DNA of 64,000 nt from Tahibacter amnicola (lineage in GTDB: Bacteria; Pseudomonadota; Gammaproteobacteria; Xanthomonadales; Rhodanobacteraceae), in the NCBI RefSeq assembly GCF_025398735.1, contig NZ_CP104694.1, positions 3,311,001 through 3,375,000 of the forward strand. Direction: 5' to 3'. Below, in pieces: positions 4,421 through 18,688 of this stretch (the first letter of the stretch is position 1; every line of letters starts with the position of its first letter). Made by a program: the position numbers and the translations under genes. A model generated the notes under the pieces. The model saw only the letters and a program-made list of their open reading frames with translations. It ran no database searches and had not been told where the DNA came from.

Positions 4421-4508
4421 CGGGATCGTGCCAGCCACTGTTCGGAAGATTTTGACGGGATCATGCCCGACGGGATCGTGCCAGCCACGATTCGGAAAAT
4501 TCCGATGC
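4421..4508 (-). repeat. Two REP-like family-I elements directly upstream of the RAYT gene
   Basis: Two near-identical direct copies begin with CGGGATCGTGCCAGCCAC at 4421-4438 and 4471-4488. Each continues into TTCGGAA, and the second completes the TTCGGAAAATTCCGA palindrome. Reverse-complemented, they match the family-I core (TCGGAATTTTCCGAATCGTGGCTGGC) in pieces. They lie 55-140 nt before the transposase start codon at 4563. Confidence 0.75.
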
Positions 4509-4562
4509 TATGCCGGGAATAGCGCTGATTCCGTCTTCCGTGCCGTGGGGCATGATGGCGCC

Positions 4563-5564
4563 ATGAGCACTCCCCGACATTTGATGGTTCCCCCAGGCGT
4601 GGCTGGGGACTACCACTGCATTTCGCGATGCGTACGAAATGCCTTTCTCTGCGGCAAGGACCGCCTGTCCGGACGGGTCCTTGATCACCGCAAGCAGTGG
4701 ATCGAGGACCGCATCTACGCGCTTGCCGAGATTTTCGCCATTGGCATTCATGCATATGCGGTGATGAGCAATCATGTCCACGTGGTGGCACATGTGGCCC
4801 CTGAGGTCGCCATGAAATGGTCCGCAGTGGAGGTCGCCCGGCGCTGGGTCGCACTGTGCCCGGTGCGCCGTGGCAACGAGATCGACGAGAATGGCTGTGC
4901 CGAACGGGTGGTGCACATTGCGGCCGATGCCGGGCGCGTAGCGCTTTACCGCGAGCGGCTTTGCGCGCTCCCCTGGTTCATGCGTTTCCTCAACGAACCC
5001 ATAGCACGACGGGCCAATCGCGAGGATGCGTGCCGCGGCCGGTTCTGGGAAGGGCGGTATCACTGCCAGGCATTGCTGGACGACGCGGCGTTGCTGGCCT
5101 GCATGGCATATGTGGATCTCAACCCCATCCGCGCAGGCATCGCGAAGGATCTTTCCTCGTCGTCGCACACATCGGTGCGTCGTCGGTTGCGGCATATTTC
5201 CAGTCAGCAGCTGCTCGGTCCGGTCGCCGGGGAAGTCGACCGGATGCTGCCAATGCGTGCCATTGAGTACATACGCCTGGTGGACTGGACGGGGCGCCAG
5301 CGGCGTGCTGGAAAGCGTGGCGCAATCTCGCAGTCGGTACCGCTCGTACTGGGATCCCTCGGCATGACGCCCGAAGGGTGGCTTGCTGAGGCTTTCACGA
5401 TCGGGTCGCGCTATTGGCGCGCAGTGGGCTCGGTGCAGGCCCTGATGAGCAAGGCACGCGAGTTGGGACAGCAGTGGCTCAAGGGCGGAGGGCAGCATCA
5501 GCGCGGCCAGCGGTTCTTGCCGGCTGGCGCGCCTTCGCACCCACCTCTTGGCGGGTCACCCTGA
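4563..5564 (+). CDS. REP-associated tyrosine transposase (RAYT), IS200/IS605 TnpA-like
   Basis: The 333-aa product belongs to the Y1 HUH transposase superfamily. It has the start YHCISRCVRNAFLCG, a histidine-hydrophobic-histidine motif in SNHVHVV, WEGRYHCQALLDD, and the tyrosine helix MAYVDLNPIRAG that carries the presumed nucleophile. RAYTs are domesticated, single-copy relatives of IS200 transposases that act on REP hairpins. Upstream in-frame codons from 4428 only translate the repeat DNA, so the ATG at 4563 (MSTPRHLMVPPG) is the sensible start. Family-I REP copies sit at 4421-4508 before and 5771-5916 after the gene, which is the usual RAYT-REP arrangement. All motifs look intact. Confidence 0.9.
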   Translation: MSTPRHLMVPPGVAGDYHCISRCVRNAFLCGKDRLSGRVLDHRKQWIEDRIYALAEIFAIGIHAYAVMSNHVHVVAHVAPEVAMKWSAVEVARRWVALCPVRRGNEIDENGCAERVVHIAADAGRVALYRERLCALPWFMRFLNEPIARRANREDACRGRFWEGRYHCQALLDDAALLACMAYVDLNPIRAGIAKDLSSSSHTSVRRRLRHISSQQLLGPVAGEVDRMLPMRAIEYIRLVDWTGRQRRAGKRGAISQSVPLVLGSLGMTPEGWLAEAFTIGSRYWRAVGSVQALMSKARELGQQWLKGGGQHQRGQRFLPAGAPSHPPLGGSP

Positions 5565-10147: not shown

Positions 10148-10599
10148 TGTGTGCGCAATCCTGAAGAGCCTGGCTGTTGGAGCCCGGCTGTTACGGAGAA
10201 GTCATGGCATAGACGCACCATATCATGCGCTAGATCGTGTAATGCGCTGTGAGGCATTCGGCGCTATATCAATGATTATTACCAGGCTGCGCAATATACA
10301 AAGAATATGATGATGCGTTATCTACCAATAAACAGTGCTCCGTGCCAAGAATCACGCCGCTCCGGCCGGCGTTCGGTCACCGCGTCCGGTCGGTGCCTGG
10401 TCCCGGGGGCAACGCGCTGTAACTGCAGGGGGCGTTGATCCATTTCACAAGATCACTTGACATCGACCCTTTCCGATGCGCAGACTCCCGCCCCATCATG
10501 AATACCTGCCGCATCAACCTGCTTACGCTACTAACCCTGCCCCTTACGGGACGGGAGGGACGCGTTTGATTCGTTGAGCTGCCAAGGTCACGAATTCTC
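10148..10599. other. Intergenic region without a supported protein gene
   Basis: About 450 nt between the divergent kinase start and the terminator at 10600. The part from 10200 to 10340 is locally AT-rich and probably contains the kinase promoter on the minus strand. A TTGACA hexamer occurs at about 10458 on the plus strand, but I see no convincing -10 at the right distance. Because a plus-strand terminator follows with no plus-strand gene before it, a small RNA could be encoded here. Confidence 0.4.
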
Positions 10600-10638
10600 G
10601 AAGCCCCCGCTCGGTCTCCGTCGGGGGCTTCGTTTTTT
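10600..10638 (+). terminator. Rho-independent terminator immediately before the tRNA array
   Basis: Perfect 10-bp arms GAAGCCCCCG (10600-10609) and CGGGGGCTTC (10622-10631) enclose a 12-nt loop and are followed by GTTTTTT. This is a textbook intrinsic terminator on the plus strand. It ends 3 nt before the first tRNA, and no plus-strand gene precedes it within the window's last 450 nt. Confidence 0.85.
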
Positions 10639-10641
10639 CCA

Positions 10642-10718
10642 GCCCAGGTGGCGCAATTGGCAGACGCGCCGGTCTCAGAAGCCGGTTTTTGTGGGTTCAA
10701 ATCCCACCCTGGGCACCA
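10642..10718 (+). tRNA. tRNA-Leu-like (CAG), short variable loop, copy 1
   Basis: 77 nt including the encoded CCA. Acceptor arms are GCCCAGG and CCTGGGC with discriminator A. The D-arm GCGCAATTGGCAGACGC is leucine-like. The anticodon stem CCGGT/GCCGG holds the loop CTCAGAA (anticodon CAG), and the T-arm is GTGGG-TTCAAAT-CCCAC. Between anticodon stem and T-stem there are only 5 nt (TTTTT), whereas bacterial tRNA-Leu are class II with a long variable arm. The cloverleaf is otherwise complete. True aminoacylation identity is therefore uncertain. Confidence 0.8.
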
Positions 10719-10733
10719 TGTTTTTCGCAGCAA

Positions 10734-10810
10734 GCCCAGGTGGCGCAATTGGCAGACGCACCGGTCTCAGAAGCCGGTTGTTGTGGGTTCAAATCCCACC
10801 CTGGGCACCA
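10734..10810 (+). tRNA. tRNA-Leu-like (CAG), short variable loop, copy 2
   Basis: 77 nt, differing from copy 1 at position 26 (A instead of G) and in the variable loop (TTGTT). The spacer from copy 1 (TGTTTTTCGCAGCAA, 15 nt) is repeated exactly after this copy, showing tandem duplication of a 92-nt unit. Anticodon CAG; all stems pair. Confidence 0.8.
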
Positions 10811-10825
10811 TGTTTTTCGCAGCAA

Positions 10826-10901
10826 GCCCAGGTGGCGCAATTGGCAGACGCGCCGGTCTCAGAAGCCGGTTGTTGTGGGTTCAAATCCCACCCTGGCACC
10901 A
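10826..10901 (+). tRNA. tRNA-Leu-like (CAG), copy 3 with a broken acceptor stem
   Basis: 76 nt. The 3' acceptor strand reads CCTGGC instead of CCTGGGC, so one G is missing and the 7-bp acceptor stem cannot form in register. The rest matches copies 1 and 2 (anticodon CAG, variable loop TTGTT). It may be a decaying duplicate or contain a sequence error. Confidence 0.65.
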
Positions 10902-10919
10902 CAGATTTCCCGTCCACAT

Positions 10920-10996
10920 GCCCGGATGGCGCAATTGGCAGACGCGCCAGGTCGAGAGCCTGGTGGTTGTGGGTTCGAATCCCACTCCGGGCACCA
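10920..10996 (+). tRNA. tRNA-Leu-like (GAG), short variable loop, with C33
   Basis: 77 nt. Acceptor GCCCGGA/TCCGGGC, the same leucine-like D-arm, anticodon stem CCAGG/CCTGG with loop TCGAGAG, 5-nt variable loop TGGTT, and T-arm GTGGG-TTCGAAT-CCCAC. The anticodon by position is GAG. Position 33 is C, although U33 is nearly universal. As in the other three, the class II variable arm is missing. Confidence 0.7.
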
Positions 10997-17657: not shown

Positions 17658-18035
17658 CTAGAACATTCCCAGCTCATTGGGAGAATCGGCTGGAATCTCC
17701 TGCCCGACATCCCACATTTCGGCAATCTTGCTGTCCTCGAACCTCAGGATATGCACTACCGCGTAGTTGAACCCTTGCTGGACTCGCTGCACCTGCGATA
17801 GCACGGCAACCGTATCGCCCGCCGCAATTGCCTGCTTGACGTCGAACGACGTGTTTGGCGCTTCGGCCGCGCTCTTTTCCATGGCCTCCAGCAGCGAGGT
17901 GCGGTCACTTCGGAAGTGGGGATTGTGATGACGGAAGCCCGCGGCGACGTGACGCTCGTAAGCCGTACGGACGTCTCCGGATGCGCACAAGGTAAGGAAC
18001 TCGATAGCGGTATCCTGGATGCTCGAGCTTGCCAT
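17658..18035 (-). CDS. SnoaL-like (NTF2-fold) protein
   Basis: The 125-aa protein has the SnoaL/NTF2 polyketide-cyclase-like layout: an N-terminal helix (AIEFLTLCASGDVRTAYERHV), FRHHNPHF, and the C-terminal VHILRFEDSKIAEMWDVGQEIP, which is characteristic of the family. Members include isomerases and small ligand-binding proteins; the substrate is not predictable. An AGGAG lies 6 nt before the ATG at 18035. It is 143 nt downstream of nothing on its own strand except the REP array, so it is probably monocistronic. Confidence 0.85.
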   Translation of the reverse strand: MASSSIQDTAIEFLTLCASGDVRTAYERHVAAGFRHHNPHFRSDRTSLLEAMEKSAAEAPNTSFDVKQAIAAGDTVAVLSQVQRVQQGFNYAVVHILRFEDSKIAEMWDVGQEIPADSPNELGMF

Positions 18036-18092
18036 GATCGACTCCTGCGAATGCGGGACTGCCGATCATAGGCTTCGTCGAAGCACGGCTTC

Positions 18093-18560
18093 GTCGAGGC
18101 TGGCAACGCCGTCATTCACTCGGAATTTTCCGGACCATGGCTGGCCTGAAGCGGTTGGCTGGCCCAACGTTGTTCCGGGCAGGAGTCAGGACCCTCAGCG
18201 CATTGCCCGGCACGCGGCTCGGAATTTTCCGGATTGTGGTTGGCCTGGATTGCACCTTCGCTCGGAATTTTCCGAATCGTGGTTGGCCTGGAATGCCGGG
18301 CCTGGAATGCCGTCGAGGTTGGCAACGCCGTCATTCACTCGGAATTTTCCGGACCATGGCTGGCCTGAAGCGATTGGCTGGCCCGACGCTGTTCCGGACA
18401 GGAGTCAGGATCCTCAGCGCATTGCCCGGCACGCGGCTCGGAATTTTCCGGATTGTGGTTGGCCTGGATTGCACCCTTCCGGGCAGGAGTCAGGACCCTC
18501 AGCGCATTGCCCCGCACGCGGCTCGGAATTTTCCGAATCGTGGTTGGCCTGGAATGATTT
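18093..18560 (+). repeat. Tandem array of six REP-like family-I elements
   Basis: Six copies of TCGGAATTTTCCG[AG] plus TGG[CT]TGGCC start at 18120, 18219, 18262, 18339, 18438 and 18523, all on the plus strand. They sit in a larger tandem duplication: 18093-18255 and 18312-18475 are near-identical (period 219 bp), and a partial third unit covers 18478-18560. Copies alternate between two subtypes (GACCATGGCTGGCC and GATTGTGGTTGGCC). This accounts for most of the 653-nt gap 18036-18688; the open frames through it are translated repeats. Confidence 0.85.
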
Positions 18561-18688
18561 GGCCTGGAATGCCGTAGTCGCCTGGAATGGCGGATGCGGA
18601 TCTGGAGCGCGGGCTGGGGGATGAGCCTTGTCTCACGCCATGACACCGCCGCGCGTATCCTTGCCGGATTCGTGCGGGAGGTGCCGGT

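What the first reader, a model, noticed from the sequence alone, without database searches (positions are those of the whole stretch)
10642..10996. Array of four leucine-anticodon tRNAs without the class II variable arm
Four tandem tRNA genes have leucine-type D-arms (GCGCAATTGGCAGACGC) and anticodons CAG (three) and GAG (one), but only 5 nt between the anticodon and T stems (77 nt in total). Bacterial tRNA-Leu normally has a long variable arm. They could be mischarged, serve as regulatory or decoy RNAs, or be recognised by LeuRS in an unusual way. A 92-nt unit was duplicated (identical 15-nt spacers).
Basis: partly seen in the sequence, partly recalled or inferred. Interest (0 to 1): 0.78.

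Follow-up and report, generated by a model that had tools for sequence, protein, structure and literature searches.

The report
Self-sensing operon of replacement leucine tRNAs
A bacterium carries a spare set of slimmed-down leucine tRNAs behind what looks like a built-in sensor that would turn them on when its normal leucine tRNAs run short, and similar-looking sensor-plus-tRNA operons occur in several distant bacterial groups.

Summary
The array is real: four tRNA-Leu genes (CAG x3, GAG) with a 5-nt variable region, in a genome that also holds all five canonical long-arm tRNA-Leu. They keep the elements leucyl-tRNA synthetase reads (A73, A15-U48, G18G19, A20a), so mischarging or decoy roles are unlikely. 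Short-arm tRNA-Leu occur in phages, plasmid tRNA islands and scattered bacterial genomes.

The new part lies upstream: a TTGACA box, a 23-codon leader ORF with six Leu codons (MNTCRINLLTLLTLPLTGREGRV) and an intrinsic terminator directly before tRNA 1. Three other gammaproteobacterial arrays of short-arm Leu genes share this layout and a 9-nt core (ACGGGAGGG) that can pair with the terminator's 5' arm. Of 64 short-arm arrays usable, 27 have a nearby terminator, and 23 of these have a leader ORF ending 18-35 nt before it (3.1 expected; range set after seeing data). None of 31 canonical tRNA units of this genome does.

Best reading: leader-peptide attenuation controls a replacement-tRNA operon induced when charged tRNA-Leu is depleted, most usefully by tRNA-cutting nucleases. 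The attenuator is inferred from sequence; the window's own antiterminator is not significant alone. Charging, induction and nuclease evasion are untested.

The parts
10457..10486 (+). putative promoter: TTGACA (10457-10462), 18-nt spacer, CAGACT (10481-10486)
   Evidence: TTGACA lies 36-41 nt before the leader ATG in 4 of 4 gamma loci. The -10 match is weak here (3 of 6); 4 of 6 in L052, 3 of 6 in G084, 5 of 6 in L121. The consensus scanner found no promoter.
10498..10569 (+). leader ORF MNTCRINLLTLLTLPLTGREGRV* with six Leu codons (CTG CTT CTA CTA CTG CTT)
   Evidence: counterparts at L052, G084/L284 and L121; pooled Leu 21 of 89 residues, expected fraction 0.099. A second overlapping ORF (33 codons, not Leu-rich) ends 21 nt before the terminator.
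10535..10543 (+). segment 1: 5' arm of the pause hairpin (CCCTGCCCC), inside the leader codons
   Evidence: minimum-energy folds
10546..10560 (+). segment 2: ACGGGACGGGAGGGA, proposed antiterminator strand, contains ACGGGAGGG
   Evidence: ACGGGAGGG (10551-10559) invariant in the 4 aligned loci; pairs with the terminator 5' arm when RNA covered by a stalled ribosome is withheld. For the window alone the duplex is no better than shuffles (p=0.57).
10599..10638 (+). intrinsic terminator: 34-nt hairpin (-25.6 kcal/mol) and T6, directly before tRNA 1
10642..10718 (+). tRNA-Leu(CAG) copy 1, 5-nt V region TTTTT
10734..10810 (+). tRNA-Leu(CAG) copy 2, V region TTGTT
10826..10901 (+). tRNA-Leu(CAG) copy 3, one base missing in the 3' acceptor strand, probably impaired
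   Evidence: ARAGORN ends it at 10900
10920..10996 (+). tRNA-Leu(GAG) copy 4, V region TGGTT, C33

Best explanation
The locus is an operon of replacement leucine tRNAs controlled by leader-peptide transcription attenuation. RNA polymerase starts just before a short leader ORF that contains six CUN leucine codons. If charged tRNA-Leu is plentiful, the ribosome reaches the stop codon 29 nt before the terminator and keeps segment 2 covered or paired, so the terminator forms and the tRNAs are not made. If charged CUN-reading tRNA-Leu is scarce, the ribosome stalls on the Leu codons. Segment 2 then pairs with the 5' arm of the terminator, and polymerase reads through into the tRNA genes. The tRNAs lack the variable arm, which LeuRS does not need, are charged with leucine, and restore decoding, which closes the loop. 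Making more tRNA helps only if tRNA itself is lost, so the likeliest trigger is destruction or inactivation of the normal tRNA-Leu, for example by a tRNase; the missing arm and altered anticodon loops would protect the replacements. Shown from sequence: genes, identity elements, leader ORF, terminator, shared layout. Predicted: antiterminator, promoter. Inferred: translation of the leader, induction, charging, trigger, protection.
For: (1) Leader ORF plus terminator precede 4 of 4 gammaproteobacterial loci found with two or more short-arm Leu genes: window, L052, G084/L284, L121, with TTGACA 36-41 nt before the ATG in 4 of 4 and an invariant ACGGGAGGG. (2) Pooled Leu content 21 of 89, p=1.3e-4 (leaders chosen by me). 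(3) Folding the RNA downstream of a ribosome stalled on Leu codons gives a helix between segment 2 and the terminator 5' arm in 4 of 4. (4) Wider set: 23 of 27 short-arm arrays with a terminator within 130 nt have an ATG ORF ending 18-35 nt before it, 3.1 expected; 11 of 13 lineage representatives, 1.5 expected. (5) Several leaders are enriched for the amino acids of their own operon: L068 [Leu x5, Tyr], L115 [Tyr, Ser, Ser, Leu, Leu], L067, L060, L080, L058, L110 (random-set p 0.0003-0.008). (6) Antiterminator pairing beats shuffles over 24 of the 27 loci, Fisher p 5e-11, many of them related. (7) 0 of 31 canonical tRNA units of this genome have such a leader. (8) A73 in 196 of 198 and U48 in 195 of 198 distinct short-arm tRNAs; A73, A15-U48, G18G19 and A20a are described as E. 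coli leucine determinants, and variants missing the variable arm as active (PMC9976931 passages). (9) One strong LeuRS hit and all five canonical tRNA-Leu in the genome.
Against: The window's own antiterminator duplex is not better than shuffled sequence (p=0.57; L052 p=0.10). Before the terminator's 3' arm is made, G084 and L121 are predicted to form the antiterminator even without a ribosome, so there control would rest on the ribosome covering segment 2. The G084 leader alone is not Leu-rich (4 of 22), and no Leu-only leader passes the random-set test at 0.05 (p 0.051-0.15). A second ORF in the window ends 21 nt before the same terminator. A first whole-ORF test gave only 10 of 64 arrays at p<=0.05. 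The 18-35 nt range was set after seeing data. 37 of 64 short-arm arrays have no terminator within 130 nt; of 24 Leu-only ones only the four gamma loci do, and two further gamma loci with one short-arm gene (L287, L159) and L049, an alphaproteobacterial Leu-only array, do not. The -10 box is weak. Copy 3 is damaged. No expression data exist here. No tRNase that cuts tRNA-Leu was sought in this genome.
Confidence: 0.66

Rival explanations
1. The array is a relic of a phage or plasmid tRNA island that supplies common codons; the upstream ORF and terminator are incidental.
For: Short-arm tRNA-Leu are found in phages and plasmid tRNA islands. None of 7 congeners matches the array beyond the 37 bases that canonical tRNA-Leu(CAG) also gives, and 3 of 3 nearly full-length GST loci of congeners have no tRNA. 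Copy 3 is decaying.
Against: Leader and terminator recur at four gamma loci with shared elements and nothing comparable precedes 31 canonical units. The immediate neighbours are a hybrid histidine kinase and a GST, not phage genes.
Confidence: 0.16
2. The unit responds to leucine starvation and the extra uncharged tRNAs amplify the stringent response or act as regulatory RNAs.
For: Such a leader would sense low Leu-tRNA from any cause, including starvation (general knowledge of attenuators).
Against: Leaders of several mixed-tRNA operons match several amino acids at once, which starvation for one amino acid would not explain; identity elements for charging are conserved.
Confidence: 0.1
3. One reading: the tRNAs are mischarged or serve as decoys.
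For: They lack the class II arm and have unusual loops (A37; C33 in GAG).
Against: A73 and U48 are conserved in 196 and 195 of 198 distinct genes, Leu anticodons in 65 of 66 anticodon-free matches; the arm is described as dispensable for E. coli LeuRS.
Confidence: 0.05

Closest known systems
Amino-acid biosynthesis attenuators with Leu leader peptides (E. coli leuL-leuABCD; recalled)
   Same: short leader rich in regulatory codons, pause hairpin, antiterminator, intrinsic terminator
   Different: the genes behind it are tRNA genes, not biosynthetic enzymes; directly upstream of ilvC in this genome there is another ORF and no such leader
trn operon of Anabaena sp. PCC 7120 (26 tRNAs; passages of PMC10272220)
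   Same: an accessory tRNA operon, silent at rest and induced under translational stress; Nostoc and Kovacikia plasmid tRNA clusters, which I take to be related, also hold short-arm tRNA-Leu
   Different: controlled by the repressor TrcR; many tRNA types
Phage-encoded tRNAs proposed to evade tRNA-cutting defences (passages of PMC10264068)
   Same: supernumerary tRNAs with altered anticodon loops; phages also carry short-arm tRNA-Leu
   Different: here chromosomal, Leu-only, behind a putative attenuator; no phage genes next to it
Mycobacterium tRNA cluster with a short-loop tRNA-Leu(TAG) (passage of PMC6582537)
   Same: extra tRNA-Leu with short variable loop beside a canonical isoacceptor elsewhere
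   Different: large mixed cluster; no leader peptide in the passages seen
Animal mitochondrial tRNA-Leu (passages of PMC9976931)
   Same: charged despite no long variable arm
   Different: organellar

Membership tests
Bacterial tRNA-Leu (LeuRS substrate) | A73, A15-U48, G18G19, A20a | tested here: met
   Read from the four genes (numbering mine). Wider set: A73 196 of 198, U48 195 of 198, A15 160 of the 163 that could be parsed (the parse required A14)
Bacterial tRNA-Leu (LeuRS substrate) | long variable arm (class II) | tested here: not met
   5 nt in all four
Bacterial tRNA-Leu (LeuRS substrate) | charged with leucine in the cell | not testable with these tools
   needs acid northern or tRNA-seq
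Leader-peptide attenuator | short ORF with clustered regulatory codons | tested here: met
   6 Leu in 22 residues (binomial p=0.018, random-set p=0.051); pooled four loci p=1.3e-4
Leader-peptide attenuator | intrinsic terminator between leader and structural genes | tested here: met
   10599-10638
Leader-peptide attenuator | mutually exclusive antiterminator | tested here: inconclusive
   predicted in 4 of 4; window alone p=0.57 against shuffles, 24 loci together p=5e-11
Leader-peptide attenuator | response to charged tRNA level | not testable with these tools
   needs a reporter assay
Amino-acid biosynthesis attenuator | downstream biosynthesis genes | tested here: not met
   tRNA genes follow, then a GST gene
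tRNA island / tRNA array unit | dense array of many different tRNA types | tested here: not met
   four tRNAs, one amino acid
TrcR-controlled trn operon | TrcR repressor site over the promoter | not tested
   no search for TrcR was made

The most novel reading that the evidence does not exclude
These arrays belong to an undescribed, widely scattered class of self-sensing tRNA-replacement operons: a leader peptide spells out the amino acids whose tRNAs the operon encodes, a terminator-antiterminator switch reads ribosome stalling on those codons, and the output is structurally altered tRNAs that resist whatever destroyed the originals.
Probability: 0.5. Interest if true: 0.92.

Novelty: new variant of a known kind. 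Interest (0 to 1): 0.8.

Why it matters
[quoted passage not shown] The scan here holds 196 distinct short-arm genes with Leu anticodons from bacterial and viral contigs, which speaks against this for Leu. If the attenuator reading holds, cells measure depletion of particular tRNAs and answer by making replacements, a bacterial counterpart of the phage strategy of bringing one's own tRNAs. The leader peptide would then also hint at which tRNAs are under attack, so unknown tRNA-cutting toxins might be predicted from leader sequences.

Tried and rejected
Hidden long arm: rejected, only 5 nt between the stems. Leader as a common ilv or leu leader: no match in 40 other genomes and one in the own genome by DNA search, and none directly upstream of ilvC; the leuA region was not looked at. 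Known RNA family upstream: nothing but the tRNAs above gathering score. Codon-compensation relic: kept as a rival. Second LeuRS: one strong hit (238 bits) and two weak ones over the cut-off (30-32 bits), which I take for related synthetases without checking. A composition test on all upstream ORFs was weak (10 of 64 at p<=0.05) because it took only the first start codon and missed leaders such as L121's; the later tests fix the leader by its distance to the terminator, a range set after seeing the data. For L052 and L121 I used an internal ATG that aligns with the window leader; the longest in-frame ORFs there are 57 and 31 codons.

Rows dropped: of 101 arrays, 9 had under 250 nt upstream and 28 more than 12 tRNAs, leaving 64. 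27 of 64 had a terminator within 130 nt. 16 of the 113 genome stretches held no matching ARAGORN tRNA. The lineage representatives (13 of 27), the leaders (13 of the 23, plus L115) and the loci (24 of 27) were picked by me. In one search the hit for L114 is probably chance. A script reading anticodons was one base out; one search repeats it correctly over all 100 stretches, and one search had used 80 of them (53 of 54).

Rarity by the pattern, own genome included: 3 of 398 genomes of the order, one of them (G163) not a tRNA by its sequence; 3 of 369 in the class; 2 of 398 in the phylum, the second (G1023) not resembling a tRNA by eye; 1 of 9 in the family of G084 (that one is G084 itself).

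Literature: no paper on leader-peptide control of tRNA operons appeared in searches (one library of open-licence papers; most subscription papers are missing). For PMC9976931, PMC6582537, PMC10272220, PMC10264068, PMC13273310, PMC5966550 and PMC7609411 I saw passages only; other papers only as search listings. E. coli leuL is recalled.

Full report
What was checked. The window contains four tandem tRNA-Leu genes at 10642-10996. All have a 5-nt variable region. Copies 1 and 2 are sound by sequence; copy 3 lacks one base in its 3' acceptor strand; copy 4 (GAG) has C33 in place of the usual U33. The pattern that describes them is not expected by chance in the window (4 found, 0.00 expected).

The genome. 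The window lies in a 6.46 Mb single-contig genome. ARAGORN on 25 fetched stretches around the other tRNA hits finds five canonical long-arm tRNA-Leu: UAG, UAA, CAA, GAG, CAG. There is one strong LeuRS hit. The array is therefore additional. In 7 congeners the DNA search finds at most the 37 bases that the canonical tRNA-Leu(CAG) also gives (two of the seven have 87% and 95% completeness). The short-arm pattern finds one further real array among 398 genomes of the order, in G084. The neighbouring GST gene is found over nearly its full length in three congeners, and none of those three loci has a tRNA gene. Long-arm tRNA-Leu also occur in G084, in G405 (the contig of L121) and in the genome of L052, two matches each to a long-arm pattern whose reversed control gives 0-1 matches per genome; 8 of the 11 genomes asked had a match.

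What the tRNAs are. The four genes keep A73, A15, U48, G18G19 and A20a. In E. coli these are described as leucine determinants, while the long arm is not one and variants missing it remain active (PMC9976931 passages). The pattern itself asked for A35 and R36, so a viral scan that left the anticodon free is the better test: 66 distinct sequences, 65 with a Leu anticodon. So selection seems to keep them as leucine tRNAs. They occur in Vibrio phage JSF10 and Citrobacter phage Ci1, in Nostoc and Kovacikia plasmid tRNA clusters, and in bacterial genome contigs of several phyla. One paper already notes a short-loop tRNA-Leu(TAG) in a Mycobacterium cluster (PMC6582537 passage). The short arm by itself is thus an under-noticed variant, not a first.

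The upstream element. Between the divergent histidine kinase gene and tRNA 1 lies a TTGACA box (10457), a 23-codon ORF (10498-10569) with six Leu codons, including two CTA and two CTT, and a strong terminator (10599-10638). The same order is found at three other gammaproteobacterial loci with two or three short-arm Leu genes: L052 (MNIRRNLLCNLLSPLRAGREGSA), G084 (MNIIRTQRLRRLSLPLTGREGCV) and L121 (MNINHKKYLLLLSLKKREGYFLSC). TTGACA lies 36-41 nt before the ATG in all four, so the transcript would be nearly leaderless (inference). The aligned loci share ACGGGAGGG. Two further gammaproteobacterial loci with a single short-arm tRNA-Leu (L287 from G751, and L159) have no terminator by my scan.

Fold logic. 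For the complete leader, a hairpin in the Leu-codon stretch and the terminator are predicted together. If RNA up to 11 nt past a stalled A-site codon and the terminator's 3' arm are withheld, the remaining RNA folds with segment 2 paired to the terminator 5' arm, for several of the Leu codons in each of the four loci. In G084 and L121 this pairing is predicted without a ribosome too while the 3' arm is missing, so there the switch would need the ribosome at the stop codon to cover segment 2, which lies in the last codons of the leader. With the complete terminator present the fold is more stable again, as is usual for kinetic attenuators (general knowledge). Against shuffles the duplex gives p=0.57 for the window, 0.10 for L052, 0.03 for G084 and 0.006 for L121; over 24 loci the combined p is 5e-11, though many come from related Flavobacterium and Chryseobacterium relatives.

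Beyond gammaproteobacteria. Of 64 usable short-arm arrays, 27 have a terminator within 130 nt of the first tRNA; 23 of these 27 have an ATG ORF that ends 18-35 nt before the hairpin, against 3.1 expected from shuffles. For 13 lineage representatives chosen by me the figures are 11 and 1.5. The spacing range was set after seeing the first results, so the p-values are too small, but the excess is large. The control on 31 canonical tRNA units of the own genome gives 2 terminators and 0 leaders. Of the 24 Leu-only arrays, only the four gamma loci have a terminator; the others are mostly single genes, many from Frankiales and Streptomyces. In several cases the leader is enriched for the amino acids of its own operon: L068 (Leu x5, Tyr...LGYYLLLSSL...), L115 (Tyr, Ser, Ser, Leu, Leu; MFALRLHLLRYLSRSSS, but no terminator found), L067 (Leu, Pro, Trp, Gln, Asp, Tyr, Cys, Asn; MSNPQADLWPCDYQDQVQPGGGRA), and L060, L080, L058, L110. 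L132 shows no enrichment, L106 and G084 are not significant, and single-amino-acid sets cannot do better than about 0.05 in that test. A cruder earlier test gave 10 of 64 arrays at p<=0.05.

Interpretation. The simplest account is a leader-peptide attenuator whose output is the tRNA that the leader measures. Because more tRNA cures a shortage of charged tRNA only when the tRNA itself is missing, the likely trigger is tRNA damage. Phage tRNAs with altered anticodon loops are proposed to evade tRNases (PMC10264068 passages), and VapC52 of M. tuberculosis is reported to cut a tRNA-Ser in its variable loop (PMC13273310 passages). The array's tRNAs differ from the canonical ones in both places. This last step is inference; no such nuclease was looked for here. 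The Anabaena trn operon shows that an accessory tRNA operon can be silent and stress-induced, there through the repressor TrcR (PMC10272220 passages).

Novelty. Leader-peptide attenuation and accessory tRNA operons are both known; their combination was not found in the searches made. I rate it a new variant of a known kind, with an even chance that it defines a class of its own.

Noticed in passing
window 10920-10996 and host loci L047, L052, L057, L075, L083, L101, L108, L115, L129, L153: C33 in place of U33 occurs only in short-arm tRNA-Leu(GAG): 10 of 14 distinct host GAG genes and 0 of 11 viral ones, plus one viral case among 20 GAG; none with other anticodons. Recurs in several phyla; unexplained.
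   Followed up: partly
L060, L074, L077, L080, L097, L134, L146 and L088, L122, L151, L154, L156: Two families of conserved leader ORFs (M[KQ]QLH... and MALHN/MALQN...) end 21-33 nt before terminators in front of mixed tRNA arrays of Chryseobacterium/Epilithonimonas and Flavobacterium; in 11 of these 12 loci (L074 not tested) GGTGC in the leader pairs with the terminator 5' arm.
   Followed up: partly
L061, L067, L106 (Variovorax): Related reading frames with ...QA(N/D)LW(P/A)CD...PGG... before a strong terminator and arrays that begin Leu-Pro-Trp.
   Followed up: partly
L287 and L159: Both short-arm tRNA-Leu(UAG) genes are preceded by a similar reading frame WGRYQASLVP.FSVTGREW, with no terminator found by my scan.
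   Followed up: no
window 4428-5564 and 18019-18624: ORF with a Y1 transposase match below the curated cut-off, and repeated peptide-like frames (SEFSESWLAW / NFPDCGWPGLH) that suggest REP-like repeats.
   Followed up: no
own genome G000: No tRNA-Ile(GAU) or tRNA-Ala(UGC) among the tRNAs called around the 49 Rfam hits; possibly rRNA operons are masked.
   Followed up: no
L040 (Variovorax sp. WDL1 plasmid 3), 3000-4901: Island of 18 tRNA genes with no feature annotated under it in the table shown, including a long-arm tRNA-Leu(CAG) with the same loop CTCAGAA as the window array.
   Followed up: no
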